Below are positions 1 to 64,000 of a stretch of 64,000 nt of DNA, piece after piece. The stretch spans positions 9,346,526 through 9,410,525 of the forward strand of contig NC_132881.1 in assembly GCF_030463535.1 (NCBI RefSeq), given 5' to 3'. The stretch is from Salminus brasiliensis. Its lineage: Eukaryota; Chordata; Actinopteri; Characiformes; Bryconidae. A model generated the notes under the pieces. That model did no database searches. It saw only the letters and a program-made list of their open reading frames with translations, and had not been told where the DNA came from. The translations under genes were made by a program, and so were the position numbers. Positions within the stretch are counted from its first letter, which is position 1. The number at the start of each line of letters is the position of its first letter.

Positions 1-2109
1 ATTATTCAGTTTCTATACATGTATTGACTTTCTTTTTTTGTCTTAACGTTCTTTCGGACCGCATGAACCAAGGGTCTGTGCATCTGCCACTGTGTGTGAC
101 TCGCTACTATCTTTCTGCAAGTGTGTAACAGGTAGGTGATCATTCAGTTTCTATACATGTATTGACTTTCTTTTTTTGTCTTACAGGTTTTTCGGACCGC
201 ATGAACCAAGGATCTGTGCAACTGCAACTGTGTGTGGCTCGCTACTATCTGTTTGCAAGTGTGTAACAGGTAGGTGATCCTTTAGTTTCTATACATGTAT
301 TGACTTTCTTTTTTTGTCTTACAGGTCTTTCGGACCACATGAACCAAGGGTCTGTGCATCTGCAACTGTTTGTGACTCGCTACTATCTGTCTGCAAGTGT
401 GTAACAGGTAGGTGATCATTCAGTTTCTATACATGTATTGCCTTATCGTTGTCTTACAGGATTTCAGGACCAATGGCTCCCCCCTTCTTGATAGTGTATA
501 CAGCCAACAAGGGTCTTTCTATTTCCACTGTGTGTGTGGATCGCTATCAATCTGTCTGCATATGTGTAACAGGTAGGTGATCATTCAGTTTCTATACATG
601 TATTGACTTTATTTTTTGTCTTAAAGGTCTTTCGGACCACATGAACCAAGGGTCTGTGCATCTGCAACTGTGTGTTTCTTACTACTATCTGTCTGCAAGT
701 GTGTAACAGGTAGGTGATCATTCATTTTCTATACATGTATTGACTTTCTTTTTTGTCTTAAAGGTTTTTCGGACTGCATGAACCAAGGGTCTTTGCATCT
801 GCAACTGTGTGTGACTCGCTACTCTCTGTCTGCAAGTGTGTAACAGGTAGGTGATCATTCAGTTTCTATACATGTATTGACTTTATTTTTTTTTCTAAAA
901 GGTCTTTCGGACCACATGAACCAAGGGTCTGTGCATCTGCAACTGTGTGTGACTCGCTACTATCTGTCTGCAAGTGTGTAACAGGTAGGTGATCACTCAG
1001 TTTCTATTCATGTTTTGACTTTCTTTTTTTGTGTTACAGGTTTTTCTGACCGCATGAACCAAGCGTCTTTCCATTGCCACTGTGTGTGTGGCTCGCTATA
1101 AATCTGTCTGTAAGTGTGTAACAGATAGGTGATCATTCAGTTTCTATACATGTATTGACTCTTTTTTTTGTCTTACAGGTTTTTCAGACAGCATGATCCC
1201 CTCCCTCGCTTCCTGATGGTGGATCTGTCCTTCAAGGGTCTGTGCATCTGCAACTGTGTGTGACTCTCTACTATCTGTCTGCAAGTGTGTAACAGGTAGG
1301 TGACCATTCAGTTTGTATACATGTATTGCCTTTTTGTTGTTTTACAGGCTTTCAGGACCAATGGCTCCCCCCTTCCTGATGGTGCATACAGCCAACAAGG
1401 GTCTTTCCATTGCCACTGTGTGTGTGGCTCGCTATCAATCTTTCTGCAAGTGTGTAATAGGTAGGTGATCATTCAGTTTCTATACATGTATTGACTTTCT
1501 TTTTTTGTCTTAAAGGTCTTTCGGACCACATGAACCAAGGATCTGTGCATCTGCAACTGTGTGTGGCTCGCTATCAATCTGTCTGCAAGTGTTTAACAGG
1601 TAGGTGATCATTCAGTTTGTATGCATGTATTGACTTTCTTTTTTGTCTTAAAGTTCTTTCGGACCACATGAACTAAGGGTCTGTGCGTCTGCAACTGTGT
1701 GTGACTCGCTACTATCTGTCTGCAAGTGTGTAACAGATAGGTGATCATTCAGTTTCTATACATGTATTGATTTTCTTTTTTGTCTTAAAGGTTTTTCAGA
1801 CAGCATGATCCCCTCCCTCGCTTCCTGATGGTGGATCTGTCCTTCAAGGGTCTGTGCATCTGCAACTGTGTGTGACTCTCTACTATCTTTCTGAAAGTGT
1901 GTAACAGGTAGGTAATCATTCAGTTTGTATACATGTATTGCCTTTTTGTTGTCTTACAGGCTTTCAGGACCAATGGCTCCCCCCTTCCTGATGGTGCATA
2001 CAGCCAACAAGGGTCTGTCCATTGCAACTGTGTGTGTGGCTCGCTATCTATCTGTCTGCAAGTGTGTAACAGGTAGGTGATCATTCAGTTTCTATACATG
2101 TATTATATG
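1..2109 (+). repeat. 137/138-bp splice-signal tandem array, block A
   Basis: About 15 head-to-tail units. A typical unit reads as an exon-like block of about 83 nt, from GTTTTTCGGACC to TGTGTAACAG. It is followed by a 55-nt intron-like block that starts GTAGGTGATC and contains TACATGTA, then TTGAC, a T-rich tract and TTACAG. A longer exon class of about 113 nt, containing TTTCAGGACCAATGGCTCC, occurs near 460, 1349 and 1960. Donors and acceptors are mostly conserved, with variants such as TTAAAG. All units have the same orientation. The block begins before the window and stops at about 2109, where a LINE is inserted. The function is unknown. It could be a satellite that fortuitously carries splice signals, or tandemly amplified mini-exons. 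Confidence 0.93.
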
Positions 2110-6631: not shown

Positions 6632-8242
6632 TTGAGGGGAAGCACTGACGCATTCTGCAACTCTGTAACAGGTAAGTGATTCATTCAGTTTCTATAAATG
6701 TATTGACTTTCTTTTTTGTGTTACAGGTTCTCAAGAAGTCCATCAACCTCTTCTTCTCCCTGAAGGTGTATCCTTCTAACAAATATATTTTCATCTGCAA
6801 CTGTGTGTGGTTCGCTACTATCTGTCTGCAAGTGTGTAACAGGTAGGTGATCATTCAGTTTCCATACATGTATTGCCTTTTTGTTGTCTTACAGGCTGTC
6901 AGGACCAATGGCTCCCCCCTTCCTGATGGTGCATACAGCCAACAAGGGTCTGTCCATTGCAACTGTGTGTGTGGCTCGCTATCTATCTGTCTGCAAGTGT
7001 GTAACAGGTAGGTGATCATTCAGTTTCTATACATGTATTGACTTTCTTTTTTTGTCTCACAGGTTTTTCGGACAGCATGACCACCTCCCTCCATTCCTGA
7101 TGGTGGATCTGTCCTTCAAGGGTCTGTGCATCTGCAACTGTGTGTGACTCGCTACTATCTGTCTGCAAGTGTGTAACAGGTAGGTGATCATTCAGTTTCT
7201 AAACAAGTAGCGACTTTTCTTTTTGTGTTACAGGTTCTCAAGAAATCCATCAACCTCTTCTTCTCCTTGAAGCTGTATCCTTATAACAAATATGTTTTTA
7301 TCTTCAACTGTGTGTGGTTCGCTACTTTCTGTCTGATCATTCAGTTTCTACACATGTATTGACTTTCTTTTTTTTTGTCTTACAGGTTTTTCGGACCGCA
7401 TGAACCAAGGGTCTGTGCATCTGCAACTGTGTGTGTGGCTCGCTATCTATCTTTCTGCAAGTGTGTAACAGGTAGGTGATCATTCAGTTTCTATACATGT
7501 ATTGACTTTCTTTTTTTTGTCTTACAGGTTATACGGATCGAATGACCCCCTCCCTTCCTGATGGTGGATCTGTCCTTCAAGGGTCTGTGCATCTGCAACT
7601 GTGTGTGACTTGCTATCTGTCTGCAAGTGTGTAACAGGTTGGTGATCATTCATTTCCATACATGTATTGACTTTCTTTTTTGTGTTACAGGTTCTCAAGA
7701 AGTCCATCAAGCTCTTCTTCTCCCTGAAGGTGTATCCTTCTAACAAATCTGCAACTGTGTGTGGTTCACTGTGCATCATTCTGCAACTCTGTAATAGGTA
7801 TTTGATCATTCAGTTTCTATACATGTATTGCCTTTTTGTTGTCTTACAGGCTTTCAGGACCAATGGCTCCCCCCTTCTTGATGGTGCATACAGCCAATAA
7901 GGATCTGTCCATTGCAACTTTGTGTGTGGCTCGCTATCTGTGTCTGCAAGTGTGTAACAGGTAGGTGATCATTCAGTTTCTATACATGTATTGACTTTCT
8001 TTTTTTGTCTTACAGGTTTTTCGAACCGCATGAACCAAGGGTCTGTCCATTGCAACTGTGTGTGTGGCTCGCTATCTTTGTGTCTGCAAGTGTGTAACAG
8101 GTAGGTGATCATTCACTTTGTATACATGTATTGCCTTTTTGTTGTCTTACAGGCTTTCAGGACCAATGGCTCCCCCTTCCTGATGGTGCATACAGCCAAC
8201 AAGGGTCTTTCCATTGCAACTGTGTGTGTGGCTCGCTATCTA
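6632..8242 (+). repeat. 137/138-bp splice-signal tandem array, block B
   Basis: The array resumes after the LINE with about 11-12 units that are more heterogeneous than in the other large blocks. Three exon classes are interleaved: the GTTTTTCGGACC class, the 113-nt CTTTCAGGACCAATGGC class (near 6894, 7851 and 8152), and a class beginning GTTCTCAAGAAGTCCATC (near 6727, 7234 and 7691). The intron-like part keeps the GTAGGTGATCATTCAG start, TACATGTATTG and TTACAG end in most units. The block is cut at a TA dinucleotide (8241-8242) by a Tc1-like transposon. Confidence 0.9.
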
Positions 8243-9784: not shown

Positions 9785-11040
9785 CATCTGTCTGCAAGTG
9801 TGTAACAGGTAGTTGATCATTCAGTTTCTATACATGTATTGCCTTTTTGTTGTCTTACCCACTTTCAGGACCAATAGCTCCCCCGTTCCTGATGGTGCAT
9901 ACACCCAACAAGGGTCTGTCCATTGCAACTGTGTGTGTGGCTCGCTATCAATCTGTCTGCAAGTGTGTAACAGGTTGGTGATCATTCAGTTTCTATACAT
10001 GTATTGACTTTCTTTTTTGTGTTACAGGTTCTCAGGAAGTCCATCAACCTCTTCTTCTCCCTGAAGGTGTATTCTTCTAACAAATATATTTTCATCTGCA
10101 ACTGTATGTGGTTCGCTGTCCATCATTTTGCAACTCTGTAACAGGTAGGTGATCATTCAGTTTCTATACATGTATTGCCTTTTTGTTGTCTTACAGGCTT
10201 TCAGGACCCAATGCTCCTCCATTCCTGATGGTGGATGTTTTCTTCAAGTCACCTGTGTGTGGCTCGCTATCTATCTGTCTGCAAGTGTGTAAGAGGTAGG
10301 TGATCATTCAGTTTCTATACATGTATTTTCTTTTTTTGTCTTACAGGTTCATGACTCCATGAGCCCCTCCCTCCCTGACCATGCATCCAGCCACCACAGT
10401 CTGTCCATCTGTAGCTGTCTTGCTCGCTGTCTATTGTTCTGCAACTGTGTTAAAGGTAAGTGATCTTTCAGTTTCAAAACCTGTATTGACTTTATTTGTT
10501 GTCTTACAGGTTCTGAGGATGTCCTTATCCCCTCCCTGCCTGATGGTGGATCTGTCCATCAAGGGTCCATCCATCTGCATCTGTGTATGGCTCACTGTCT
10601 ATCTGTCTGCAACTGTCTAACAGGTAGGTGATCATTCAGTTTCTATACATGTATTGACTTTCTTTGTTTGTCCTACAGGTTCTGATGGTGGATCTGGTGG
10701 ACAAGGGTCTGTCCATGTGCAACTGTGTGTGTGACTCGCTATCTATCTTTCTGCAAGTGTGAAAGGTTAGTGACCATTCCATTTTAAAACTTGTCGGCTT
10801 TCCTTTTTTTGTCTTATAGGTTTTCAGGACCCCTTCCTGATGGTAGATATGGCCAACAAGGGTCTGTCCTTCTGCAACTGTGTTTTTTGCTTCATATCGG
10901 TCTGCTTCTGTGTAACACATAGGTGATCATAAAGTTTCTAGATATGTATTGTCTTTTTTTATGTCTTACAGGTTTATAGGACCCCATGACCCTCCCCCCT
11001 CGTAATGGTGGCTCTGGGCAACAAGGTTCTGTCCATCTGA
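9785..11040 (+). repeat. 137/138-bp splice-signal array, block C (divergent edge)
   Basis: About nine units, increasingly divergent from left to right. Near 10348, 10510 and 10679 the exon-like blocks differ strongly from the consensus but keep the CAG|GTAGGTGATC donor context and a TTACAG or CTACAG acceptor. The last unit (about 10900-11040) runs from an exon-like CCCCATGACCC block into TTTTCTTTTTGTGCTTC, a different acceptor that serves the terminal exon-like sequence at 11068. One unit near 9860 has lost its acceptor (TTACCC). The divergence suggests that this is the old edge of the array. Confidence 0.85.
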
Positions 11041-34726: not shown

Positions 34727-34799
34727 GGCACCGCTGGGATTCCAAGCCAGGATCTCCTGTTTACTAGACAGGCGCTATAACCAACTAAGCCACGGCACC
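34727..34799 (-). tRNA. tRNA-Thr(AGT)-like copy 6, T-arm defect
   Basis: The T arm reads CTGGCTTGGAAT, with both a stem mismatch and the C56 change. The same lesion is present in copy 8, so these two units share a recent ancestor. Probably a pseudogene. Confidence 0.78.
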
Positions 34800-35273
34800 C
34801 TACCTGACTGCTTTTCTATATCAACACAATATAGCTTCAGGCAAACTCAAAAACATTCTCTTGCATACAAACTTCACATAGACAGCAAAAACAACTTCCC
34901 TGATTAGGAACCTCTGCATTTTCCAGAAACAAATAACATCAACTCTGAAAGCTTGTCACGCAGAATGTACACACAAAACTTAGCATCTTTTGTTTACCCT
35001 TCAGGTTCCGTTTAAACATCTTTTAATGGATCAGTAAACATCATTCTGACTCAGAAAAGGCTAAAATCCAACATTTCAAACTGCTTCATCTCACTTTTCA
35101 CAAATACATGCAGAATCTTCTGCAGCACAAATATGTTCCAATACCCCAACATCAAACAGAATATTTCTGAAAGTTTGAAATTGCTATTAATTAGGTAAAA
35201 AGACTAGAGAAAATCTTGCAAATAAAAGTACAAAAAGGTAGTAGACAGAGCTTTAAAGAAGAGGAAACACTCT

Positions 35274-35363
35274 CGACTCTGGTGGGACTCGAACCCACAA
35301 CCTTTGAATTGCTCCAGCTATTTATCTAGAAGTCCAATGCGCTATCCATTGCGCCACAGAGCC
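35274..35363 (-). tRNA. tRNA-Arg(TCT), canonical, with 17-nt intron
   Basis: All stems pair: acceptor GGCTCTG with CAGAGTC, D arm GCGCAATGGATAGC, anticodon stem TTGGA/TTCAA around CTTCTAA, and T arm GGTTCGAGTCC. A 17-nt intron (GATAAATAGCTGGAGCA) lies one base 3' of the anticodon, the usual position in vertebrate tRNA-Arg(TCT). This tRNA decodes AGA codons. It is the only fully canonical Arg copy in the array and is transcribed from the minus strand through internal A and B boxes. Confidence 0.95.
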
Positions 35364-35600
35364 CAGGTGAAGAAACGGGTTCCTTGGCCAACCTTCCTAT
35401 AAAATAACAGTAGTGCTGCTAATATTTGAGGCAAATAATAAATTTACTATGCATATGTAAATCCCAGTGGTCTGATGATTATCTGCAAGTCTAAGCACAC
35501 ACCAAAGCTCTGCATACTGTTAGTCATAGTCTGACGCCAATAAAAAAAGGGTTGATTTACTCATTGTAGCAGTTACTGATTAAAGATTACCCAAGGAAAA

Positions 35601-35673
35601 GGCACCGCTGGGATTCGAACCCAGGATCTCCTGTTTACTAGACAGGCGCTATAACCAACTAAGCCACGGCGCC
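35601..35673 (-). tRNA. tRNA-Thr(AGT), canonical
   Basis: 73 nt with a perfect acceptor stem (GGCGCCG/CGGTGCC, one G-T pair), D arm GCTTAGTTGGTTATAGC, anticodon loop CTAGTAA and T arm TTCGAAT. A TTTT run follows immediately downstream as terminator. The anticodon AGT would be modified to IGT and read ACU/ACC/ACA. This is the only fully canonical Thr copy of the eight. Confidence 0.96.
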
Positions 35674-36189
35674 CTACATGACTGGTTTTCTATATCAATA
35701 CAATGTAGCTTCAGGCAAACTCAAAAACATTCTCTTGCATACAAACTTTACACAGACAGCAAAAACAACTTCCCTGATTAGGAACCTCTGCATTTTCCAG
35801 AAACAAATAACATCAACTCTGAAAGCTTGTCTCAATTGCTTAAACCTATCATATACATGTACAGAGTACTAGACCTTGTCACGCAGAATGTACACACAAA
35901 ACTTAGCATCTTTTGTTTACCCTTCAGGTTCTGTTTAAACATCTTTTAATGGATCAGCAAACATCATTCTGATTCAGAAAAGGCTAAAATCCTACATTTC
36001 AAACTGCTTCATCTCACTTTTCACAAATACATGCAGAATCTTCTGCAGCACAAATATGTTCCAAGACCCCAACATCAAACAGAATATTTCTGAAAGTTTG
36101 AAATTGCTATTAATTAGGTAAAAAGACTAGAGAAAATCTTGCAAATAAAAGTACAAAAAGGTAGTAGACAGAGCTATAAAGAAGAGGAA

Positions 36190-36279
36190 ACACTCTGGTG
36201 GGACTCAAACCCACAACCTTTGAATTGCTCCAGCTATTTATCTAGAAGTCCAATGCGCTATCCATTGCGCCACAGAGCC
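36190..36279 (-). tRNA. tRNA-Arg(TCT)-like copy 7, 3' end damaged
   Basis: A short deletion in the 3' flank changes the last acceptor bases, so G1 no longer pairs. The T loop reads TTTGAG with C56 lost. The anticodon TCT and intron are intact. Probably a pseudogene. Confidence 0.72.
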
Positions 36280-36525
36280 CAGGCGAAGAAGTTGGTTCCT
36301 TGGCCAACCTTCCTATAAAATAACAGTAGTGCTGCTAATATTTGAGGCAAATAATAAATTTACTATGCATATGTAAATCCCAGTGGTCTGATGATTATCT
36401 GCAAGTCAAAGCACACACCAAAGCTCTGCATACTGTTAGTCATAGTCTGACACCAATAAAAAATTGTTTGATTGGGTTGATTTACTCATTGTAGCAGTTA
36501 CTGATTAAAGATTACCAAAGGAAAA

Positions 36526-39800: not shown

Positions 39801-40263
39801 TAGAATACGTCACAAGCTGCACTTTTGGATTATGCAGTTTAACTGAGCTAAAATTAGCATTGTAAATACTATTAGGTAGTATAGAAACGCCAGATCCTGT
39901 ATCAACTAGCAATTTTACATTACATGCAGCAGTAGTATTTGGTAGAGTGATGGTAACAGGGCACATTAGTTTAATTGCATCAACAGTGAAATTATTTTCA
40001 ACACTTAAAACACACATTTCAGGCACAGTCACTTCATTAACTGGCTTTCGAGAGGACTTGCATACTCTTGAGAAGTGTCCCAATTTTCCACATGAGTTGC
40101 ATTTAGAGTTTGTTGCAGGGCACGACTTGTCATTTGCTTTGTGCTCAGCAGCACCACACCGGTAGCATGACGTAGCACCATCAGTTTTACGAGCAGGTTT
40201 TTGTTTTGGGTTACGTGTCTTCTTTTGCACTTGCACAGCAGCAACGGGCTTTGTATCAGTCAC
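36895..40263 (-). pseudogene. Gypsy nucleocapsid-protease-RT-RNase H-integrase (pol), broken
   Basis: Segment 40263-39331 has two Cys-His zinc knuckles (CYRCGAAEH... and CNSCGKLGHFSRVC) and the aspartic protease site VDTGSG. A frameshift in an A-run near 39365 leads to segment 39413-38724 with reverse transcriptase motifs (DLKSAYHQ, YLDDV). An in-frame TGA at 38724-38726 precedes segment 38663-37899 with RNase H (STDASDYGVGA, RTDHQAL). A further frame break near 37970-38000 precedes the integrase segment (37959-36895) with its zinc-binding CSTC, VDIIGPF, ISDNGPQF and the catalytic Glu in GEVERFNRS. These lesions prevent a full polyprotein. Confidence 0.93.
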
Positions 40264-40867
40264 AGAAATCGCTAACAGCTATAGCGGCTTCAGTACGCCT
40301 GGCTACATCCAGAGTTTTATCCAGTGTCAAACCTTCTTCCATTAAAAGTCTTTCACGGATGCGGGAACTGTTTGTTTTCTCTACAATTTGATCCCGAAGC
40401 ATCTCATCCTCCATAGCTCCAAACTGACATTTTTTTACCAGTTCACGCAATGCTGCGACATAGTGATCAATTGACTCACCTACAGCTTGTGCTCTTTGCC
40501 TAAAGCGGTATCTTTCTGCGACAATGTTTAGTTTTGGACTGAAGTGCTTCTCCAAAGCCTTTACTGAGCCCTCATAGTCATCTTTTTCGAGTGGTAAGGT
40601 GCTGTAGATTCGGTTACCCTCCGTTCCCAAGCAGTGAATAAGCAAGGCTCTCTTCCTCTCGGCAGGAAACTCGCCTCCCCCGACAGCAAGCAGATAGTTA
40701 TCGAATAGCATTTTCCAAGTAGCAAATGGAATTGTCGGGTTGCCTGGGCAGTCCAGGAACACAGCAGGAGGTTGCAAGGAGAGCAGAGCCATGTCTGTAT
40801 CTTCACTCCTTCTCTCGTCGCCACTTTGTTGTGTTGCTTGTCGTTCAGAGTCAGACATTAACCACAC
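40256..40867 (-). CDS. Gypsy gag
   Basis: An open frame of 203 codons. The first codons lie within the LTR, so the real start is more likely the internal Met at about 40792 (MALLSLQP). It contains a retrotransposon capsid-like region, with an aromatic/Leu-rich stretch (TWKMLFDNYLLAVG) followed by FRQRAQAVGESIDHYVAALR, as in Gypsy capsid proteins. It ends at a TGA that overlaps the start of the next frame by a few bases. The nucleocapsid zinc knuckles lie in that next frame. The protein would form element particles. Confidence 0.85.
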   Translation of the reverse strand: MWLMSDSERQATQQSGDERRSEDTDMALLSLQPPAVFLDCPGNPTIPFATWKMLFDNYLLAVGGGEFPAERKRALLIHCLGTEGNRIYSTLPLEKDDYEGSVKALEKHFSPKLNIVAERYRFRQRAQAVGESIDHYVAALRELVKKCQFGAMEDEMLRDQIVEKTNSSRIRERLLMEEGLTLDKTLDVARRTEAAIAVSDFCD

Positions 40868-41029
40868 ACGATTATGGAACAGAGAGCTTACTATTTTGTT
40901 TATTCTTCTCCTCCTTTCCTCTCTTCTTTTTCTTACCTCAAACAGTCCACTAGTGCCCCCAGTGTCCTAAATCCGTAACAACGAATTTGTTTAATATATG
41001 CATTAAACACATTGCATATGGACACAACA
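40827..41029 (-). repeat. 5' LTR of the Gypsy element
   Basis: It starts TGTTGTGTTGCTTG and ends GGACACAACA on the + strand. Transcription of the element would begin here and run towards lower coordinates. Confidence 0.95.
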
Positions 41030-50362: not shown

Positions 50363-50780
50363 GGGTTCTTCTACTTCTTCTTCAGAGGACTTCTTTTGAA
50401 AGGAGACTCGTGACCACCGTCTTTCAATTGTAACAATGAAACATTTTATTCCAATCAAAAGTACAATGTGGAGAGAGTCTGCCAATTCTGGGTGCCCTTC
50501 TTCTCTCTTTCCCAGACAAAGGAATACCTTATGTTTTATACCCTACTATACGTCATATGTTGTTAGACTGTTCTCATATGCAGGATGTCTGCAGCACGTA
50601 GACCATGTAAGTAATGGTGGGGGCTAATGATGATTCCTTATGGATGAAATGCAGACACAGCTGGACCCCTTAACATCTCTTTTACGTTATGTTTGTTCAG
50701 TTCATGTACAGTTTCTCACATTAGGTCTGGGAACAGATTCCACTCTCCTTTCCAAGACTACCACATGGGCCTCACTATAT
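50363..50780. other. Unclassified sequence between LINE and array
   Basis: No gene or repeat recognised. The array begins mid-intron-unit at 50781. Confidence 0.45.
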
Positions 50781-52852
50781 TCAGTTTCTATACATGTATT
50801 GACTTTCTTTTTTGTGTTACAGGTTCTCAGGTACCCCATCAACCCAACAAATGTATTTTCATCGGCAACTGTGTGGCTCACTGTCTGAACTGTGTGTTCT
50901 GCAACTCTGTAACATATGAGTGATCATTCATTTCCATACATGTATTGACTTTCTTTATTGTCTTACACGCTTTCTGGACCAATGGCTCCCCCCTTCCTGA
51001 TGGTGTATACAGCCAACAATAGTCTGTCCATTGCAACTGTGTGTGGCTCAGGTAAGTGTGGTAACAGGTAAGGGATCATTCAGTTTCTATACATGTATTT
51101 TTTTTGTCTTACAGGTTTTTCGGACTGCATGTACCAAGGGTCTGTGCATCTGCAACTATTTGTGTCTCGCTACTATCTGTCTGCAAGTGTGTAACAGGTT
51201 GGTGATCATTCAGTTTCTATACATGTATTGACTTTCTTTTTTTGTCTTACAGATTTTTCGGACCACATGAACCAAGGGTCTGTGCATCTCCAACTGTGTG
51301 TGACTCACTATCTGTCTGCAAGTGTGTAACAGGTAGGTGATCATTCAGTTTCTATACATGTATTGACCTTCTTTTTTTGTCTTAAAGGTCTTTCGGACCT
51401 CATGAACCAAGGGTATGTGCATCTGCAACTCGCTACTATCTGCCTGCAAGTGTGTAACAGGTAAGTGATCATTCAGTTTCTATACATGTATTGACCTTCT
51501 TTTTTTGTCTTACAGGTTTTTCGAACCGCATTAACCAAGGGTCTGTGCATCTGCAACTGTGTGTGAGTCGCTACTATCTGTCTGCAAGTGTGTAACAGGT
51601 AAGTGATCATTCCGTTTCTATACATGTATTGCCTTTTTTTTTTTTGTCTTACAAGTTTTTCGAACCGCATTAACCAAGGGTCTGTGCATCTGCAACTGTG
51701 TGTGAGTCGCTACTATCTGTCTGCAAGTGTGTAACAGGTAGGTGATCATTCAGTTTCTATACATGTATTGACCTTTTTTGTCTTACAGGTTTTTCGGACC
51801 GCATTAACCAAGGGTCTTTCCGTTGCAACTGTGTGTGTGGCTCGCTATCAATCTGTCTGCAAGTGTGTAACAGGTAGGTGATCATTCAGTTTCTATACAT
51901 GTATTGACTTTCTTTTTTTGTCTTGCAGGTTTTTCGGACCGCATGAACCAAGGGTCTTTCCATTGCCACTGTGATTGAGTTGCTACTATCTGTCTGCAAG
52001 TGTGTAACAGGTAGGTGATCATTCAGTTTCTATACATGTATTGACTTTCTTTTTTTGTCTTACAGGTTTTTCGGACCGCATTAACCAAGGGTCTGTGCAT
52101 CTGCAACTGTGTCTGACTTGCTACTATCTGTCTGCAAGTGTGTAACAGGTAGGTGATCATTCAGTTTCTATACATGTATTGACTTTCTTTTTTTGTCTTA
52201 CAGGTTTTTCGGACCACATGAACCAAGGGTCTGTGCATCTGCAACTGTGTGTGACTCGCTATCTGTCTGCAAGTGTGTAACAGGTAGGTGATCATTCAGT
52301 TTCTATACATGTGTTGACCTTCTTTTTTTTTTCTTACAGGTTTTTCGGACCGTATGAACCAAGGGTCTTTCCATTGCCACTGTTAGTGAGTTGCTACTAT
52401 CTGTCTGCAAGTGTGTAACAGGTAGGTGATCATTCAGTTTCTATACATGTATTGACTTTCTTTTTTTGTCTTACAGGTTTTTCGGACCACATGAACCAAG
52501 GGTCTGTGCATCTGCAACTGTGTGTGACTCGCTATCTGTCTGCAAGTGTGTAACAGGTAGGTGAGCATTCAGTTTCTATACATGTATTGACCTTCTTTTT
52601 TTGTCTTACAGGTTTTTCGGACCGCATTAACCAAGGGTCTGTGCATCTGCAACTGTGTCTGACTCGCTACTATCTGTCTGCAAGTGTGTAACAGGGAAGT
52701 GATCATTCAGTTTCTATACATGTTTTGACTTTCTTTTTTTGTCTTACAGGTTTTTCGGACCGCATGAACCAAGGGTCTTTCCATTGCCACTGTGAGTGAG
52801 TTGCTACTATCTGTCTGCAAGTGTGTAACAGGTAGGTGATCATTCAGTTTCT
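50781..52852 (+). repeat. 137/138-bp splice-signal tandem array, block D
   Basis: About 15 units in the same orientation as the blocks 40 kb away. The first units are divergent and include the GTTCTCAGG exon class (50822) and a variant with GGCTCAGGTAAGTGTGGTAA (about 51045) that recurs at about 58490. Later units are uniform. Donor (CAG|GTAGGT or GTAAGT) and acceptor (TTACAG, TTAAAG, TTGCAG) motifs are kept. The block is interrupted by an L1 insertion. Confidence 0.93.
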
Positions 52853-53835
52853 TTTTTTTTTTAAATACTTTATTTTAGTTTTTGTTTCTTTGTTGTATAA
52901 TCAGTACAAACAGACAAACAAACAAGCAACAACAAAAAAAAATACATATCAAACAAACCCTACCCCCTCCCGTCGAGCACATTCAAGAAAGAAATAAAAT
53001 AATAATAATAATAATAGTAATAATAACAACAACAACAATAATATTGTGATAGAAAATAAAAATAACAGCAACAATGACAGTAACATCTGCAGTAGCAGCA
53101 TAGAAGGAAAAAATAAATAAATAAATAAACGAGAGAAGAAAAAAAAAAAAAGGAGAGAAAAAAAAAAAAAAGGGCCAACAAATGATGGTCTTACAGTTAC
53201 TTACATTTATGGTCTTACATTTACTTGAAATAAGTAATTATTGGATTCCAAATCTGGTTAATGTACTTCTGTGCACTTGGTCCACGGCCACATGCACGCT
53301 CCACAGAGGCAAAATTAAGCATCTCAGCTAGCCAATGCTTGAACGATGGAGCGAAAGGCGATTTCCAATTCAAAAGGAGCAGCTTCTTAGCCACAATCAT
53401 AGCAGCCATCACCACCCGTTGTATCTTGTAAGGAAAGGTAAATAATAATGCAGAACACCCACAAATTATGATTATGGGATCAAAGTCTAATTTTATTTCA
53501 AGAGTTTTGGAAAGCCAATCAAAAATTCTTGACCAGAAGGTCTGTAGCACAGGGCAGGTTATAAACAGATGAGTCAAAGAGCCCTCCTCAATTTTGCATC
53601 TTTCACAAAGAGGTGAGATGGATTCAAAAATCTTATGTAATTTAGTCCTGGAGTAATGCAGCCGGTGAAGCACCTTAAACTGAATCAGCCTGTATCGAGA
53701 GTTTACAGAGCAGCTTAATACACGAGACAAACTCTCCACCCACACTTCTTCTGTAATTTCGCTATCTATCTCTCTCGCCCAAGCCTCTCTAAATTTAGTT
53801 GTGTCTGGAGTAGCTCTCAAAACTGTAATAAAAAT
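52853..53835 (-). mobile_element. 5'-truncated L1/Tx1-like LINE with 17-bp target duplication
   Basis: The array sequence GTGATCATTCAGTTTCT occurs directly on both sides (52836-52852 and 53836-53852). A T-rich tract (poly-A tail of a minus-strand insertion) follows the left copy. The insert holds the 3' part of an L1-type ORF2 and an A-rich, low-complexity 3' UTR. This is target-primed reverse transcription into an array unit, so the array existed before it. Confidence 0.95.
53221..53820 (-). pseudogene. C-terminal part of L1/Tx1-like ORF2
   Basis: 199 open codons that end at TAA. Near the middle is CERCKIEEGSLTHLFITC, the C-terminal Cys-His zinc-knuckle-like motif of L1/Tx1-clade ORF2 proteins, preceded by RYRLIQFKVLHRLHYSRTKL and followed by FWSRIFDWLSK. 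The RT and endonuclease domains are absent because of 5' truncation. The uninterrupted frame suggests a recent insertion. It cannot encode an active protein. Confidence 0.88.
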
Positions 53836-54119
53836 GTGATCATTCAGTTTCTATACATGTATTGACTTTCTTTTTTTGTGTTACAGGTTTTTCGGACCGC
53901 ATTATCCAAGGGTCTGTGCATCTGCAACTATGTGTGACTCGCTATCTGTCTGCAAGTGTGTAACAGGTAGGTGATCATTCAGTTTCTATACATGTTTTGA
54001 CTTTCTTTTTTTGTCTTACAGGTTTTTCGGACCGCATGAACCAAGGGTCTGTGCATTTGCAACTGTGTGTGACTCGCTACTATCTGTCTGCAAGTGTGTA
54101 ACAGGTAGGTGATCATTCA

Positions 54120-57100
54120 GTTTCTATACATGTATTGACTTTCTTTTTTTGTCTTACAGGTTTTTCGGACCGCATGAACCAAGGGTCTTACCATTGCCAC
54201 TGTGAGTGAGTTGCTACTATCTGTCTGCAAGTGTGTAACAGGTAAGTGATCATTCAGTTTCTATACATATATTGACCTCATTTTTTTGTCTTGCAGGTTT
54301 TTCGGACCGCATGAACCAAGGGTCTTTCCATTGCCACTGTGTGTGTGACTCGCTACTATCTGTCTGCAAGTGTGTAACAGGTAGGTGATCATTCAGTTTC
54401 GATACATGTATTGACTTTCTTTTTTTGTCTTAAAGGTCTTTCGGACCACATAAACCAAGGGTCTGTGCATCTGCAACTGTTTGTGACTCGCTACTATCTG
54501 TTTGCATGTGTGTTACAGGTAGGTGATCATTCAGTTTCTATACATGTATTGACCTTTTTTTGTCTTGCAGGTTTTTCGGACCGCATGAACCAAGGGTCTT
54601 TCCATTGCCATTGTGTGTGTGGCTCGCTATCAATCTTTCTGCAAGTGTGTAACAGGTAGGTGATCAATTAGTTTCTATACATGTATTGACTTTCTTTTTT
54701 TGTCTTACTGGTTTTTCGGACCACATAAACCAAGGGTCTGTGCATCTGCAACTGTTTGTGACTCGCTACTATCTGTTTGCATGTGTGTTACAGGTAGGTG
54801 ATCATTCAGTTTCTATACATGTATTGACCTTTTTTTGTCTTGCAGGTTTTTCGGACCACATGAACCAAGGGTCTTTCCATTGCCACTGTGTGTGTGGCTC
54901 GCTATCAATCTGTCTGCAAGTGTGTAACAGGTAGGTGATCATTCAGTTTCTATACATGTATTGACTTTCTTTTTTTGTCTTACAGGTTTTTCGGACTGCA
55001 TTAACCAAGGGTCTGTGCATCTGCATCTATGTGTGACTCGCTATCTGTCTGCAAGTGTGTAACAGGTAGGTGATCATTCCGTTTCTATACATGTATTGAC
55101 TTTCTTTTTTTGTCTTAAAGGTCTTTTGGACCACATGAACCAAGGGTCTGTGCATCTGCAACTGTGTGTGACTCGCTACTATCTGTCTGCAAGTGTGTAA
55201 CAGGTAAGTGATCATTCAGTTTCTATACATGTATTCACTTTCTTTTTTTGTCTTGCAGGTTTTTCGGACCGCATGAACCAAGGGTCTTTCCATTGCCACT
55301 GTGAGTGAGTTGCTACTATCTGTCTGCAAGTGTGTAACAGGTAGGTGATCATTCAGTTTCTATACATGTATTGACTTTCTTTTTTTGTCTTGCAGGTTTT
55401 TCGGACCGCATGAACCAAGGGTCTTTCCATTGCCACTGTGAGTGAGTTGCTACTATCTGTCTGCAAGTGTGTAACAGGTAGGTGATCATTCAGTTTCTAT
55501 ACATGTATTGACTTTCTTTTTTTGTCTTAAAGGTCTTTCGGACCACATGAACCAAGGGTCTGTGCATCTGCAACTGTGTCTGACTTGCTACTATCTGTCT
55601 GCAAGTGTGTAACAGGTAGGTGATCATTCAGTTTCTATACATGTATTGACTTAATTTTTTTGTCTTACAGGTTTTTCGGACCGCATGAACCAAGGGTCTT
55701 ACCATTGCCACTGTGAGTGAGTTGCTACTATCTGTCTGCAAGTGTGTAACAGGTAAGTGATCATTCAGTTTCTATACATATATTGACCTCATTTTTTTGT
55801 CTTGCAGGTTTTTCGGACCGCATGAACCAAGGGTCTTTCCATTGCCACTGTGTGTGACTCGCTACTATCTGTCTGCAAGTGTGTAACAGGTAGGTGATCA
55901 TTCAGTTTCGATACATGTATTGACTTTCTTTTTTTGTCTTAAAGGTCTTTCGGACCACATAAACCAAGGGTCTGTGCATCTGCAACTGTTTGTGACTCGC
56001 TACTATCTGTTTGCATGTGTGTTACAGGTAGGTGATCATTCAGTTTCTATACATGTATTGACCTTTTTTTGTCTTGCAGGTTTTTCGGACCGCATGAACC
56101 AAGGGTCTTTCCATTGCCATTGTGTGTGTGGCTCGCTATCAATCTTTCTGCAAGTGTGTAACAGGTAGGTGATCAATTAGTTTCTATACATGTATTGACT
56201 TTCTTTTTTTGTCTTACTGGTTTTTCGGACCACATAAACCAAGGGTCTGTGCATCTGCAACTGTTTGTGACTCGCTACTATCTGTTTGCATGTGTGTTAC
56301 AGGTAGGTGATCATTCAGTTTCTATACATGTATTGACCTTTTTTTGTCTTGCAGGTTTTTCGGACCACATGAACCAAGGGTCTTTCCATTGCCACTGTGT
56401 GTGTGGCTCGCTATCAATCTGTCTGCAAGTGTGTAACAGGTAGGTGATCATTCAGTTTCTATACATGTATTGACTTTCTTTTTTTGTCTTACAGGTTTTT
56501 CGGACTGCATTAACCAAGGGTCTGTGCATCTGCATCTATGTGTGACTCGCTATCTGTCTGCAAGTGTGTAACAGGTAGGTGATCATTCCGTTTCTATACA
56601 TGTATTGACTTTCTTTTTTTGTCTTAAAGGTCTTTTGGACCACATGAACCAAGGGTCTGTGCATCTGCAACTGTGTGTGACTCGCTACTATCTGTCTGCA
56701 AGTGTGTAACAGGTAAGTGATCATTCAGTTTCTATACATGTATTCACTTTCTTTTTTTGTCTTGCAGGTTTTTCGGACCGCATGAACCAAGGGTCTTTCC
56801 ATTGCCACTGTGAGTGAGTTGCTACTATCTGTCTGCAAGTGTGTAACAGGTAGGTGATCATTCAGTTTCTATACATGTATTGACTTTCTTTTTTTGTCTT
56901 GCAGGTTTTTCGGACCGCATGAACCAAGGGTCTTTCCATTGCCACTGTGAGTGAGTTGCTACTATCTGTCTGCAAGTGTGTAACAGGTAGGTGATCATTC
57001 AGTTTCTATACATGTATTGACTTTCTTTTTTTGTCTTAAAGGTCTTTCGGACCACATGAACCAAGGGTCTGTGCATCTGCAACTGTGTCTGACTTGCTAC

Positions 57101-57150
57101 TATCTGTCTGCAAGTGTGTAACAGGTAGGTGATCATTCAGTTTCTATACA
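54120..57150 (+). repeat. Higher-order duplication of about 1.51 kb (11 units)
   Basis: The series of unit variants in the first half (54120-55640) recurs in the second half in the same order with offset 1509-1511 bp. The 2-bp difference comes from a GTGTGTGTG versus GTGTGTG change near 54340/55850. Confidence 0.9.
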
Positions 57151-58224
57151 TGTATTGACCTTCTTTTTTTGTCTTACAGGTCTTTTGGACCACATGAACC
57201 AAGGGTCTGTGCATCTGCAACTGTGTCTGACTCGCTACTATCTGTCTGCAAGTGTGTAACAGGGAAGTGATCATTCAGTTTCTATACATGTTTTGACTTT
57301 CTTTTTTTGTCTTACAGGTTTTTCGGACCGCATGAACCAAGGGTCTTTCCATTGCCACTGTGAGTGAGTTGCTACTATCTGTCTGCAAGTGTGTAACAGG
57401 TAGGTGATCATTCCGTTTCTATACATGTATTGACTTTCTTTTTTTGTCTTAAAGGTCTTTTGGACCACATGAACCAAGGGTCTGTGCATCTGCAACTGTG
57501 TGTGACTCGCTACTATCTGTCTGCAAGTGTGTAACAGGTAAGTGATCATTCAGTTTCTATACATGTATTCACTTTCTTTTTTTGTCTTGCAGGTTTTTCG
57601 GACCGCATGAACCAAGGGTCTTTCCATTGCCACTGTGAGTGAGTTGCTACTATCTGTCTGCAAGTGTGTAACAGGTAGGTGATCATTCAGTTTCTATACA
57701 TGTATTGACTTTCTTTTTTTGTCTTGCAGGTTTTTCGGACCGCATGAACCAAGGGTCTTTCCATTGCCACTGTGAGTGAGTTGCTACTATCTGTCTGCAA
57801 GTGTGTAACAGGTAGGTGATCATTCAGTTTCTATACATGTATTGACTTTCTTTTTTTGTCTTAAAGGTCTTTCGGACCACATGAACCAAGGGTCTGTGCA
57901 TCTGCAACTGTGTCTGACTTGCTACTATCTGTCTGCAAGTGTGTAACAGGTAGGTGATCATTCAGTTTCTATACATGTATTGACCTTCTTTTTTTGTCTT
58001 ACAGGTCTTTTGGACCACATGAACCAAGGGTCTGTGCATCTGCAACTGTGTCTGACTCGCTACTATCTGTCTGCAAGTGTGTAACAGGGAAGTGATCATT
58101 CAGTTTCTATACATGTTTTGACTTTCTTTTTTTGTCTTACAGGTTTTTCGGACCGCATGAACCAAGGGTCTTTCCATTGCCACTGTGAGTGAGTTGCTAC
58201 TATCTGTCTGCAAGTGTGTAACAG
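56575..58224 (+). repeat. Tandem higher-order duplication of 825 bp (6 units)
   Basis: 56575-57399 and 57400-58224 show the same series of variants, including the rare TACATGTATTCAC branch region (56744 and 57569) and the AACAGGGAAG donor mutation (57261 and 58086), at a constant 825-bp offset. Confidence 0.92.
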
Positions 58225-61200
58225 GTAGGTGATCATTCAGTTTCTATACATGTATTGACTTTCTTTTTTTGTGTTACAGGTTTTTCGGACCGCATGAACC
58301 AAGGGTCTGTGCATCTGCAACTGTGTGTGACTCGCTATCTGTCTGCAAGTGTGTAACAGGTAGGTGATCATTCAGTTTCTATACATGTATTGCCTTTTTT
58401 TTTGTCTTACACGCTTTCTGGACCAATGGCTCCCCCCTTTCTGATTGTGTATACAGCCAACAATAGTCTGTCCATTGCAACTGTGTGTGGCTCAGGTAAG
58501 TGTGGTAACAGGTAAGGTAAGTGTGTGAAAGGTAAGGGATCATTCAGTTTCTATACATGTATTGACTTAATTTTTTTGTCTTACAGGTTTTTCGGACTGC
58601 ATGTACCAAGGGTCTGTGCATCTGCAACTGTTTGTGTCTCGCTACTGTCTGTCTGCAAGTGTGTAACAGGTAAGTGATCATTCACTTTCTATACATGTAT
58701 TGACTTTCTTTTTTTGTCTTACAGGTTTTTCGGACTGCATGAACCAAGGGTCTGTGCATCTGCAACTGTGTCTGACTCGCTACTATCTGTCTGCAAGTGT
58801 GTAACAGGTAAGTGATCATTCACTTTCTATACATGTATTGACTTTCTTTTTTTGTCTTACAGGTTTTTCGGACCACATAAACCAAGGGTCTGTGCATCTG
58901 CAACTGTTTGTGACTCGCTACTATCTGTTTGCAAGTGTGTTACAGGTAGGTGATCATTCAGTTTCTATACATCTATTGACTTTCTTTTTTTGTCTTACAG
59001 GTTTTTCGGACCACATGAACCAAGGGTCCTTCCATTGCCACTGTGTGTGTGGCTCGCTATCAATCTGTCTGCAAGTGTGTAACAGGTCAGTGGTCATTCA
59101 GTTTCTATACGTGTATCGACTTTCTTTTTTTGTCTTAAAGGTCTTTCGGACCACATAAACCAAGGGTCTGTGCATCTGCAACTGTTTGTGACTCGCTACT
59201 ATCTGTTTGCAAGTGTGTTACAGGTAGGTGATCATTCAGTTTCTATACATGTATTGACTTTCTTTTTTTGTCTTACAGGTTTTTCGGACCGCATGAACCA
59301 AGGGTCTGTGCATCTGCAACTGTGTCTAACTCGCTACTATCTGTCTGCAAGTGTGTAACAGGTAAGTGATCATTCACTTTCTATACATGTATTGACTTTC
59401 TTTTTTTGTCTTACAGGTTTTTCGGACCACATGAACCAAGGGTCTGTGCGTCTGCAACTGTGTGTGACTCGCTATCTGTCTGCAAGTGTGTAACAGGTAA
59501 GTGATCATTCAGTTTCTATACATATATTGACCTCATTTTTTTGTCTTGCAGGTTTTTCGGACCGCATGAACCAAGGGTCTTTCCATTGCCACTGTGTGTG
59601 TGACTCGCTACTATCTGTCTGCAAGTGTGTAACAGGTAGGTGATCATTCAGTTTCGATACATGTATTGACTTTCTTTTTTTGTCTTAAAGGTTTTTTGGA
59701 CCACATAAACCAAGGGTCTGTGCATCTGCAACTGTTTGTGACTCGCTACTATCTGTTTGCATGTGTGTTACAGGTAGGTGATCATTCAGTTTCTATACAT
59801 GTATTGACCTTTTTTTGTCTTGCAGGTTTTTCGGACCGCATGAACCAAGGGTCTTTCCATTGCCATTGTGTGTGTGGCTCGCTATCAATCTTTCTGCAAG
59901 TGTGTAACAGGTAGGTGATCAATTAGTTTCTATACATGTATTGACTTTCTTTTTTTGTCTTACTGGTTTTTCGGACCACATAAACCAAGGGTCTGTGCAT
60001 CTGCAACTGTTTGTGACTCGCTACTATCTGTTTGCATGTGTGTTACAGGTAGGTGATCATTCAGTTTCTATACATGTATTGACCTTTTTTTGTCTTGCAG
60101 GTTTTTCGGACCACATGAACCAAGGGTCTTCCCATTGCCACTGTGTGTGTGGCTCGCTATCAATCTTTCTGCAAGTGTGTAAGAGGTAGGTGATCAATTA
60201 GTTTCTATACATGTATTGACTTTCTTTTTTTGTCTTACTGGTTTTTCGGACCGCATGAACCAAGGGTCTGTGCATCTGCAACTGTGTGTGTCTCGCTACT
60301 ATCTGTCTGCAAGTGTGTAACAGGTAAGTGATCATTCAGTTTCTATACATGTATTGACCTCATTTTTTTTGTCTTGCAGGTTTTTCGGACCGCATGAACC
60401 AAGGGTCTGTGAATCTGCAACTGTTTGTGACTCGCTATCTGTCTGCAAGTGTGTAACAGGTTGGTGATCATTCAGTTTCTATACATCTATTGACTTTCTT
60501 TTTTTGTCTTACAGGTTTTTCGGACCACATGAACCAAGGGTCCTTCCATTGCCACTGTGTGTGTGGCTTGCTATCAATCTGTCTGCAAGTGTGTAACAGG
60601 TCGGTGATCATTCAGTTTCTATACATGTATTCACTTTCTTTTTTTGTCTTACAGGTTTTTCGGACCGCATAAACCAAAGTTCTGTGCATCTGCAACTGTG
60701 TGTGACTCGCTACTCTCTGTCTGCAAGTGTGTAACAGGTAGGTGGTCATTCAGTTTCTATAAGTGTATCGACTTTCTTTTTTTGTCTTAAAGGTCTTTCG
60801 GGCCACATGAACCAAGGGTCTGTGCATCTGAAACTGTGTGTGACTCGCTACTCTGTGTCTGCAAGTGTGTAACAGGTTGGTGATCATTCAGTTTCTATAC
60901 ATCTATTGACTTTCTTTTTTTGTCTTACAGGTTTTTCGGACCACATGAACCAAGGGTCCTTCCATTGCCACTGTGTGTGTGGCTCGCTATCAATTTGTCT
61001 GCAAGTGTGTAACAGGTAGGTGATCATTTAGTTTCTATACATGTATTGACTTTCTTTTTTTGTCTTAAAGGTCTTTCGGACCTCATGAACCAAGGGTCTG
61101 TGCATCTGCATCTCGCTACTATCTGCCTGCAAGTGTGTAACAGATAAGTGATCATTCAGTTTCTATACATGTATTGACTTTCTTTTTTTGTCTTAAAGGT

Positions 61201-64000
61201 CTTTCGGACCACATGAACCAAGGGTCTGTGCATCTGCAACTGTGTGTGACTCGCTACTATCTGTCTGCAAGTGTGTAACAGGTAAGTGATCATTCCTTTT
61301 CTATACATGTATTGACTTTCTTTTTTTGTCTTAATGGTCTTTCGGACCGCATGAACTAAGAGTCTTTCCATTGCCACTGTGTGTGTGGCTCGCTATCAAT
61401 CTGTCTGCACGTGTGTAACAGATAGGTGATCAATTAGTTTCTATACATGTATTAACCTTCTTTTTTTGTCTTACAGGTTTTTCGGACTGCATGAACCAAG
61501 AGTCTTTCCATTGCCACTGTGTGTGAGTTGCTACTATCTGTCTGCAAGTGTGTAACAGGTAGGTGATCATTCAGTTTCTATACATGTATTGACTTTCTTT
61601 TTTTGTCTTGCAGGTTTTTCGGACCGCATGAACCAAGGGTCTGTATATCTGCAACTGTGTGTGACTCGCTTTCTGTCTGCAAGTGTGTAACAGGTAGGTG
61701 ATCATTCAGATTCTATACATGTATTGACTTTCTTTTTTTGTCTTACAGGTTTTTTGGACCACATGAACCAAGGGTCTTTCCATTGCCACTGTGTGTGCGG
61801 CTCGCTATCAATCTGTCTGCAAGTGTGTAACAGGTAGGTGATCATTCCGTTGCTATACATGTATTGACTTTCTTTTTTTGTCTTAAAGGTCTTTTGGACC
61901 ACATGAACCAAGGATCTGTGCATCTGCAACTGTGTGTGACTCGCTACTATCTGTCTGCAAGTGTGTAACAGGTAAGTGATCATTCAGTTTCTATACATAT
62001 ATTGACCTCATTTTTTTGTCTTGCAGGTTTTTCGGACCGCATGAACCAAGGGTCTTTCCATTGCCACTGTGTGTGTGACTCGCTACTATCTGTCTGCAAG
62101 TGTGTAACAGGTAGGTGATCATTCAGTTTCGATACATGTATTGACTTTCTTTTTTTGTCTTAAAGGTCTTTCGGACCACATAAACCAAGGGTCTGTGCAT
62201 CTGCAACTGTTTGTGACTCGCTACTATCTGTTTGCATGTGTGTTACAGGTAGGTGATCATTCAGTTTCTATACATGTATTGACCTTTTTTTGTCTTGCAG
62301 GTTTTTCGGACCGCATGAACCAAGGGTCTTTCCATTGCCATTGTGTGTGTGGCTCGCTATCAATCTTTCTGCAAGTGTGTAACAGGTAGGTGATCAATTA
62401 GTTTCTATACATGTATTGACTTTCTTTTTTTGTCTTACAGGTTTTTCGGACTGCATTAACCAAGGGTCTGTGCATCTGCATCTATGTGTGACTCGCTATC
62501 TGTCTGCAAGTGTGTAACAGGTAGGTGATCATTCCGTTTCTATACATGTATTGACTTTCTTTTTTTGTCTTAAAGGTCTTTTGGACCACATGAACCAAGG
62601 GTCTGTGCATCTGCAACTGTGTGTGACTCGCTACTATCTGTCTGCAAGTGTGTAACAGGTAAGTGATCATTCAGTTTCTATACATGTATTCACTTTCTTT
62701 TTTTGTCTTGCAGGTTTTTCGGACCGCATGAACCAAGGGTCTTTCCATTGCCACTGTGAGTGAGTTGCTACTATCTGTCTGCAAGTGTGTAACAGGTAGG
62801 TGATCATTCAGTTTCTATACATGTATTGACTTTCTTTTTTTGTCTTGCAGGTTTTTCGGACCGCATGAACCAAGGGTCTTTCCATTGCCACTGTGAGTGA
62901 GTTGCTACTATCTGTCTGCAAGTGTGTAACAGGTAAGTGATCATTCAGTTTCTATACATATATTGACCTCATTTTTTTGTCTTGCAGGTTTTTCGGACCG
63001 CATGAACCAAGGGTCTTTCCATTGCCACTGTGTGTGTGACTCGCTATCAATCTTTCTGCAAGTGTGTAACAGGTAGGTGATCAATTAGTTTCTATACATG
63101 TATTGACTTTCTTTTTTTGTCTTACTGGTTTTTCGGACCACATAAACCAAGGGTCTGTGCATCTGCAACTGTTTGTGACTCGCTACTATCTGTTTGCAAG
63201 TGTGTAACAGGTAGGTGATCATTCAGTTTCGATACATGTATTGACTTTCTTTTTTTGTCTTAAAGGTCTTTCGGACCACATAAACCAAGGGTCTGTGCAT
63301 CTGCAACTGTTTGTGACTCGCTACTATCTGTTTGCATGTGTGTTACAGGTAGGTGATCATTCAGTTTCTATACATGTATTGACCTTTTTTTGTCTTGCAG
63401 GTTTTTCGGACCGCATGAACCAAGGGTCTTTCCATTGCCATTGTGTGTGTGGCTCGCTATCAATCTTTCTGCAAGTGTGTAACAGGTAGGGGATCAATTA
63501 GTTTCTATACATGTATTGACTTTCTTTTTTTGTCTTACTGGTTTTTCGGACCACATAAACCAAGGGTCTGTGCATCTGCAACTGTTTGTGACTCGCTACT
63601 ATCTGTTTGCATGTGTGTTACAGGTAGGTGATCATTCAGTTTCTATACATGTATTGACCTTTTTTTGTCTTGCAGGTTTTTCGGACCACATGAACCAAGG
63701 GTCTTTCCATTGCCACTGTGTGTGTGGCTCGCTATCAATCTGTCTGCAAGTGTGTAACAGGTAGGTGATCATTCAGTTTCTATACATGTATTGACTTTCT
63801 TTTTTTGTCTTACAGGTTTTTCGGACTGCATTAACCAAGGGTCTGTGCATCTGCATCTATGTGTGACTCGCTATCTGTCTGCAAGTGTGTAACAGGTAGG
63901 TGATCATTCCGTTTCTATACATGTATTGACTTTCTTTTTTTGTCTTAAAGGTCTTTTGGACCACATGAACCAAGGGTCTGTGCATCTGCAACTGTGTGTG

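What the first reader, a model, noticed from the sequence alone, without database searches (positions are those of the whole stretch)
53836..64000. Tandem repeat in which every unit carries a full set of splice signals
A 137-138-bp unit is repeated about 120 times over five blocks. Each unit has a donor (CAG|GTAGGT or GTAAGT), a yUnAy-type branch motif (TTGAC) about 20 nt upstream of a T-rich tract, and an acceptor (ACAG|G). These features are conserved while other positions vary. If transcribed from the + strand, the array could give serial mini-exons, exon-skipped isoforms, circular RNAs, or a sink for splicing factors. The 55-nt spacing is short for a vertebrate intron, so splicing across several units is as likely as within one.
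Basis: partly seen in the sequence, partly recalled or inferred. Interest (0 to 1): 0.9.

Follow-up and report, generated by a model that had tools for sequence, protein, structure and literature searches.

The report
Giant satellite shaped like exon-intron pairs
A repeat whose typical unit looks like a mini-exon plus a very short intron fills long stretches of several chromosomes of this genome, but the units tested show no clear sign of being kept spliceable today, so it reads best as satellite DNA that inherited intron-shaped units.

Summary
The repeat is real: 121 units in five blocks of the window, all + strand; the given coordinates hold only the last block (74). The splice layout is non-random (1 of 20,000 shuffles), but only 73 of 116 parsed window units keep the full set. 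The stated conservation test fails inside the two array types tested: donor, branch and acceptor bases change about as often as matched bases elsewhere (combined P 0.083; 90% power for a halved rate). It is no local oddity: the intron core has 51,825 exact copies genome-wide; a rare variant maps them to C3, C4, C8, C10 and C12 in mostly one-strand blocks, with diverged relatives on C11. Between subfamilies introns are 87-100% identical, exons 29-83%, with edges at the splice boundaries. The C3 exons fail a coding test. Two searches for C4-type exon-exon copies found none confirmed (one of four candidate places opened). Best reading: a multi-chromosome satellite superfamily descended from a spliced exon-intron unit, shuffled by exchange within the shared intron core. 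Splicing today is neither shown nor excluded; RNA data would decide.

The parts
3..2072 (+). array block 1: 14 units, mixed 137-140-bp and longer forms; broken inside an intron at about 2104
6674..8242 (+). array block 2: 10 units, mostly long-exon forms; cut inside an exon by a Tc1-like element (by eye)
9809..11035 (+). array block 3: 8 units, the later ones more diverged; runs at about 11036 into an acceptor-like, exon-like sequence related to copies at 18.8-29.4 kb on the - strand
50779..52831 (+). array block 4: 15 units; interrupted inside an intron at about 52853 by an insert that repeats GTGATCATTCAGTTTCT on both sides (target-site duplication, by eye) and holds a LINE-like open frame
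53835..64000 (+). array block 5 (the finding): 74 units, mostly 135-140 bp; runs off the window end; units are present again in the sampled stretch at C4:9.42 Mb
53967..54021 (+). example intron-like segment, 55 bp: donor GTAGGT, core GATCATTCAGTTTCTATACATG.., branch TTGAC, T-rich tract, TTACAG
   Evidence: 265 of 327 exon-anchored C4 introns have length 55
54022..54104 (+). example exon-like segment, 83 bp; its length is no multiple of 3; the coding test itself was run on the 114-base C3 relatives

Best explanation
A multi-chromosome satellite superfamily whose monomer is an exon-intron module: an intron-shaped segment of about 52-59 bp, nearly constant across subfamilies, plus an exon-shaped spacer that differs by subfamily (mostly 80-172 bases). 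Shown: copy number, spread, mostly one strand per block, subfamilies, failed coding test on one exon type, no significant selection inside two array types. Inferred: (1) it began as a tandemly duplicated exon with its short intron in a spliced transcript; (2) some units amplified into very long arrays by unequal exchange and large duplications; (3) exchange between subfamilies happens in the shared 5' half of the intron, keeping that segment alike while exons diverge by substitution, indel and microinversion; (4) today's splice signals are inherited and decay at about the same rate as the rest.
For: Copies: 23-mer across exon end and intron start 43,058 exact; core 28-mer 51,825 exact, reversed control 0. 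Units held carry the exact 28-mer in 293 of 804 cases, so roughly 1.4e5 units and about 20 Mb (rough; 752 of the 804 are from the C3 stretches, the 10-kb C4 stretches and the window). Spread: a rare variant with 133 copies; of the 100 places listed, C4 26 all +, C8 34 all + at 30.2-31.1 Mb and 29 all - at 32.8-33.7 Mb, C3 4 -, C10 5 -, C12 2 +. Equal spacings of 35,938 bp recur on C8, a sign of large recent duplications. 296 parsed C3 units all -. Nine subfamily consensuses share the intron, and C8 adds another. Inside arrays, changes per site: exon 5.3, core 4.6, critical 4.4 (C4); 4.1, 4.0, 2.6 (C3). Donor GT is kept in 0.87-0.94 of units with 0-2 core mismatches but 0.67 of 52 with 3-4, so it decays with the rest. 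Reassortment: on C4 the tract half of the intron is tied to the exon after it (MI 0.439 against 0.058 shuffled, 0 of 500) but not to the exon before it (0.053 against 0.052, 222 of 500), n = 429.
Against: Critical sites lean towards fewer changes (49 against 69.4 expected, P 0.083), so weak selection is not excluded. The edges of inter-subfamily conservation sit at the splice boundaries, which exchange alone does not predict. On C3 the tract half is linked to both neighbouring exons (0 of 500 for both), so the exchange model is shown on C4 only. Descent from a spliced gene rests on the layout; no parent gene was found. Heterochromatin or centromere position was not tested. Strand coherence has exceptions: one + place at C3:17.55 Mb, and 1,203 reverse copies of the C4-type 31-mer whose places were not listed.
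Confidence: 0.6

Rival explanations
1. The arrays are transcribed and spliced now, giving very long chains of mini-exons, circular RNAs or a sink for splicing factors, with selection acting on the array rather than on each unit.
For: Splice layout beyond chance; intron conserved to its boundaries between subfamilies, with the pyrimidine tract changing its letters (identity 0.59) but staying 0.83-0.88 pyrimidine in units with up to 6 core mismatches; blocks mostly on one strand; the diverged introns of L040 on C11 carry GTRRGT in 4 of 5, TTGAC in 5 of 5 and CAG in 6 of 7 acceptors, and the diverged C12 type carries GTAAGT and TTTCAG in 4 of 4. Intron-like elements in fission-yeast pericentric RNA and HSATIII sequestration of YTHDC1 are reported in a review (PMC10356649, passages seen).
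Against: No significant selection on splice sites inside two array types, power 90% for a halved rate. Donor G1 varies in about 5-15% of units; a donor TTAGGT recurs on C3 and an intron with dead donor and acceptor occurs in 3 of 13 units on C12. No confirmed exon-exon copy. Inserted transposons break the arrays.
Confidence: 0.2
2. The conserved core is a DNA-binding or recombination box (as the CENP-B box is in alpha satellite; recalled), and the intron resemblance is incidental.
For: The most conserved part between the eight main subfamilies is +7 to +28 (mean identity 0.99), which has no known splice role, against 0.89 for the donor. The core holds the palindromes TGATCA and ATACATGTAT (read by eye).
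Against: Conservation resumes after the tract up to ACAG|G and stops there; the full splice set is unlikely by chance; the core is not slower than exons inside arrays (base-matched P 0.57 and 0.67), though an earlier exon-anchored count was lower on C4 (P 0.016; C3 P 0.10); C11 and C12 introns have changed cores with splice signals mostly kept.
Confidence: 0.14
3. A mobile intron (introner) spread the short intron-like segment.
For: Tens of thousands of near-identical short intron-like segments.
Against: The places listed lie in clusters, and the lists of three searches begin on C3, with none on C1 or C2. The lists are capped at 100 and that skips copies that I hold on C3, so this is a partial view.
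Confidence: 0.03
4. A protein-coding gene with repeated exons.
For: 114-base exons are open in one frame in 160 of 190.
Against: In those exons synonymous changes are fewer than expected (357 against 483) and stops more (75 against 43); exon lengths of 83, 113 and 158 are no multiples of 3.
Confidence: 0.02

Closest known systems
Satellite DNA with a conserved box and variable remainder (e.g. alpha satellite with CENP-B box; recalled)
   Same: Head-to-tail, very high copy, several chromosomes, larger duplicated blocks, one conserved segment per monomer
   Different: Here the conserved segment is intron-shaped and the variable part exon-shaped, with edges at AG|GT and AG|G
Pericentric transcripts with intron-like elements in fission yeast, and HSATIII RNA (PMC10356649, passages seen)
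   Same: Repeats whose RNA meets the splicing machinery (there shown, here only possible)
   Different: No transcription shown here; here the typical monomer has an intron-like segment; position relative to the centromere untested
Ultra-short vertebrate introns (HNRNPH1 56-nt intron, SPF45-dependent; PMC8363638, abstract and passages seen)
   Same: Intron length of about 55
   Different: Those are single introns in genes and proven; these are tandem and unproven
Introner elements (recalled)
   Same: Thousands of near-identical short introns
   Different: Listed copies lie in tandem clusters, not as scattered single insertions
Tandemly duplicated exons in genes and repeat-rich lncRNAs such as Firre (recalled)
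   Same: Repeated exon with its intron on one strand
   Different: Copy number far higher, several chromosomes, and introns more alike than exons between subfamilies

Membership tests
Satellite DNA | Head-to-tail tandem arrays of one monomer | tested here: met
Satellite DNA | High copy number on more than one chromosome | tested here: met
   51,825 exact cores; C3, C4, C8, C10, C12 among 100 listed places of a variant; C11 relatives. The large contigs are taken as chromosomes
Satellite DNA | Non-coding monomer | tested here: met
   for the 114-base C3 exons only; other types by lengths that are no multiples of 3
Satellite DNA | Heterochromatic or centromere-near location | not tested
   Sampled surroundings look rich in retrotransposons (by eye); no chromatin or centromere data
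Spliced transcription unit | Complete splice signals in order and spacing | tested here: met
   Consensus yes; 468 of 744 parsed units complete
Spliced transcription unit | Splice-critical bases conserved above others | tested here: not met
   Within two array types P 0.25 and 0.15, combined 0.083; between subfamilies the whole intron is conserved, the donor less than the core
Spliced transcription unit | Spliced RNA or processed copies | tested here: inconclusive
   No processed C4-type junction confirmed (one of the four places was opened; C3 and C8 junctions were not searched genome-wide); RNA not available
Introner elements | Single insertions dispersed through genes | tested here: inconclusive
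   Listed places cluster in arrays, but lists are capped at 100 and not complete
Protein-coding repeated exons | Purifying selection on codons | tested here: not met
   for the C3 114-base exons
CENP-B-box-type satellite | Sequence-specific protein bound to the conserved box | not testable with these tools
   Sequence only

The most novel reading that the evidence does not exclude
The arrays are transcribed and the monomers work as real mini-introns, so that satellite RNA made of hundreds to thousands of non-coding exons loads spliceosomes along megabases of repeat, either feeding silencing of that chromatin or soaking up splicing factors; selection acts on the array as a whole, so single units may decay.
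Probability: 0.15. Interest if true: 0.9.

Novelty: new variant of a known kind. Interest (0 to 1): 0.55.

Why it matters
A satellite of roughly 100,000 monomers (extrapolated), typically shaped as an exon plus a minimal intron, is a natural test bed: does the spliceosome engage satellite RNA, and how small and how numerous can vertebrate introns be? It also shows introns more alike than their exons between subfamilies, the reverse of ordinary duplicated genes (recalled), and suggests a way (exchange inside the shared intron) for a repeat to swap spacers while keeping one constant segment. If it is never spliced, it is a clear warning that a perfect splice layout in repeats need not mean function.

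Tried and rejected
Coding gene: rejected for the C3 exons by the synonymous/nonsense test. Processed (spliced) copies: pattern GTGTGTAACAGGTYTTTCGGAC with up to 1 mismatch, 0 matches; a wider pattern without mismatches gave 4 places, all on C11; the one I opened is a mutated acceptor, not an exon-exon junction, and the other three were not opened; junctions of the C3 114-base and C8 types were not searched genome-wide. Local junction-like hits are one C3 place seen in seven overlapping loci and are an acceptor. Low variability of introns as a sign of selection: the first profile used intron-based detection, so I repeated it anchored on exons (core lower than exon on C4, P 0.016 base-matched, C3 P 0.10) and by counting changes on a tree (no difference, P 0.57 and 0.67); recombination makes that tree approximate. 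A genome-wide count of single-base variants at critical against other sites was planned and never answered. Terminal exon of a parent gene at about 11036-11350: no Pfam family for its two read frames beyond one sub-threshold match; relatives lie at 18.8-29.4 kb on the other strand and in L014, L015 and L024, so the contact with the array may be accidental. The array start at C4:7.703 Mb joins a GT-rich tail of what looks like a dispersed repeat; it gave no parent gene. Literature: word searches for tandem-exon or exon-intron satellites (three to six terms) gave 0 papers, and 1, 8 and 1 papers; by title and start of abstract none of these ten describes this repeat, and only one of them, PMC10356649, was opened, by passages. 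Words of the repeat occur in 1 paper on a human cancer circRNA, not opened. Most subscription papers are not in that library.
Full report
What is there. The window (G000:C4:9346526-9410525; genome 1,066,335,885 bp in 103 contigs, unnamed) holds 121 units of the repeat by nhmmer, all on the + strand, in five blocks of 14, 10, 8, 15 and 74 units; the finding covers the last. Two gaps are clean later insertions: a Tc1-like element (by eye) inside one exon between 8242 and 9788, and an insert at about 52853 with GTGATCATTCAGTTTCT repeated on both sides and a LINE-like open frame. Block 1 breaks inside an intron at about 2104. The surrounding elements look teleost-like (LINE, Tc1, Gypsy; judged by eye and recall from the reading frames).

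Anatomy of the unit. Intron-like part, about 52-59 bp: GTRRGT, then GATCATTCAGTTTCTATACATGTATTGA, a T-rich tract, and TTACAG. Exon-like part: 83 bases in the common C4 type; about 113-118 in other C4 types; 114, 153 and 171 on C3; 149-158 on C8; a mixture on C12, with some of only 29 or 36 bases; about 113 on C11. One of 20,000 dinucleotide shuffles of the C4 unit has a comparable forward set of donor, branch, tract and acceptor. The full set (GTRRGT, TTGAY, tract, AG) is in 73 of 116 parsed window units and 468 of 744 parsed units overall; parsing needs a recognisable next unit and acceptor, so not all hits entered.

How much and where. The 23-mer across the exon end and donor has 37,062 forward and 5,996 reverse exact copies; the 28-mer core 44,663 and 7,162; reversed controls 0. 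In the stretches I held, 293 of 804 units carry the exact 28-mer, so the total is of the order of 1.4e5 units, around 20 Mb; this is rough because the samples are mostly C4 and C3. Of 20 stretches of 10 kb on C4, 7 hold units, between 9.2 and 14 Mb; other C4 copies run from 7.70 Mb to 17.63 Mb. A rare variant with 133 copies served as a map: the 100 listed places are on C3 (4, -), C4 (26, +), C8 (34 + at 30.2-31.1 Mb; 29 - at 32.8-33.7 Mb), C10 (5, -) and C12 (2, +). Blocks keep one strand in these data, with exceptions to tell: one + place at C3:17.55 Mb, 1,203 reverse copies of the C4-type 31-mer whose places were not shown, and five - hits in L017, which seem to come from exons with an internal microinversion between GATAG and CTATC, judged by eye. 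The place lists are capped at 100, and that skips copies I hold.

Is it coding? The C3 114-base exon is open in one frame in 160 of 190, but synonymous changes are fewer than expected (357 against 483) and nonsense changes more (75 against 43). Other exon types were not tested this way; several have lengths that are no multiple of 3.

Are splice sites under selection? Inside the two array types tested, none detectable. On exon-anchored units, changes counted on a tree per site were exon 5.26, core 4.58, tract 5.31, critical 4.43 in 266 C4 units, and 4.09, 4.04, 2.27, 2.57 in 140 C3 units; base-matched P for critical sites 0.25 and 0.15. An earlier profile without a tree gave P 0.12 and 0.16. 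Together 49 changes against 69.4 expected, P 0.083; power is 90% for a halved rate and 46% for a 30% reduction. Donor GT falls from 0.87-0.94 in units with 0-2 core mismatches to 0.67 of 52 units with 3-4. Splice-dead forms are themselves multiplied: TTAGGT donors on C3 and GTTTGG..ACAC introns in 3 of 13 units of L039 on C12.

Between subfamilies the picture differs. Over 36 pairs of nine subfamily consensuses, introns are 87-100% identical and exons 29-83%, with shuffled exons at 27-52% (the low exon values include length differences, and the smallest subfamily has 4 units). Among eight main subfamilies, identity is 0.50 at exon -45 to -21, 0.96 at -6 to -1, 0.89 at the donor, 0.99 at +7 to +28, 0.59 in the tract, 1.0 at -4 to -1, 0.86 at exon +1 to +3 and 0.51 then 0.33 beyond. 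The edges fit splice boundaries, and the tract stays pyrimidine-rich while its letters change, as past splicing would predict. But the best-kept part, +7 to +28, has no known splice role.

A mechanism that fits. On C4 the tract half of the intron is tied to the exon that follows it and independent of the exon before it, so exchange between subfamilies seems to fall in the donor-core half. Such exchange would keep that half alike in all subfamilies while exons drift apart. On C3 both neighbours are linked, which the block-wise order of its subfamilies may explain; the model is therefore shown on C4 only.

Was it ever spliced? The layout and the edges suggest descent from a spliced exon-intron pair. 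No processed copy was confirmed: 0 for the main C4 junction with up to one mismatch; four places for a wider pattern, all on C11, of which the one opened is an intron acceptor. Length is no obstacle: a 56-nt human intron is spliced with SPF45 (PMC8363638, abstract and passages). A review reports intron-like elements spliced in fission-yeast pericentric RNA, and HSATIII RNA possibly sequestering YTHDC1 (PMC10356649, passages), so a working role for introns in pericentric repeats has precedent. No RNA data are held here.

Verdict. Real, large and unusual: a satellite superfamily with exon-intron monomers on at least six contigs. Best explained as satellite DNA with inherited splice layout (0.6); active splicing 0.2; protein-binding box with incidental resemblance 0.14.

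Noticed in passing
window 30134-36280, - strand: Tandem cluster of tRNA genes, Thr(AGT) and Arg(TCT), Thr copies mostly about 923 bp apart: 11 by Rfam, 10 by ARAGORN; two more tRNA matches in L014.
   Followed up: partly
window 11036-11350 (+) and 29417-29125, 22822-22543, 18926-18821, 28279-28195 (-): A second repeated, exon-like sequence starting at an acceptor-like ..CTTGATTCAG, with relatives in L014, L015 and L024; the + copy abuts the end of array block 3.
   Followed up: partly
window 36895-40966, - strand: Gypsy-like retroelement reading frames in pieces (identified by eye).
   Followed up: no
C8:30.18-33.67 Mb: The same subfamily lies + on one side and - on the other side of about 32 Mb, the two blocks facing each other, with recurring spacings of 35,938 bp in the + block; the position of the centromere is unknown.
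   Followed up: partly
L039 positions 28-1798 (C12): Very short 29- and 36-base exons and a recurring splice-dead intron type mixed with intact ones.
   Followed up: no
L035 1-1380 (C4:7.703 Mb): The first C4 block begins at a GT-rich tail of what looks like a dispersed fish repeat ending ..GAGTGTGTAACAG, matching 16 of the last 18 exon bases by eye.
   Followed up: no
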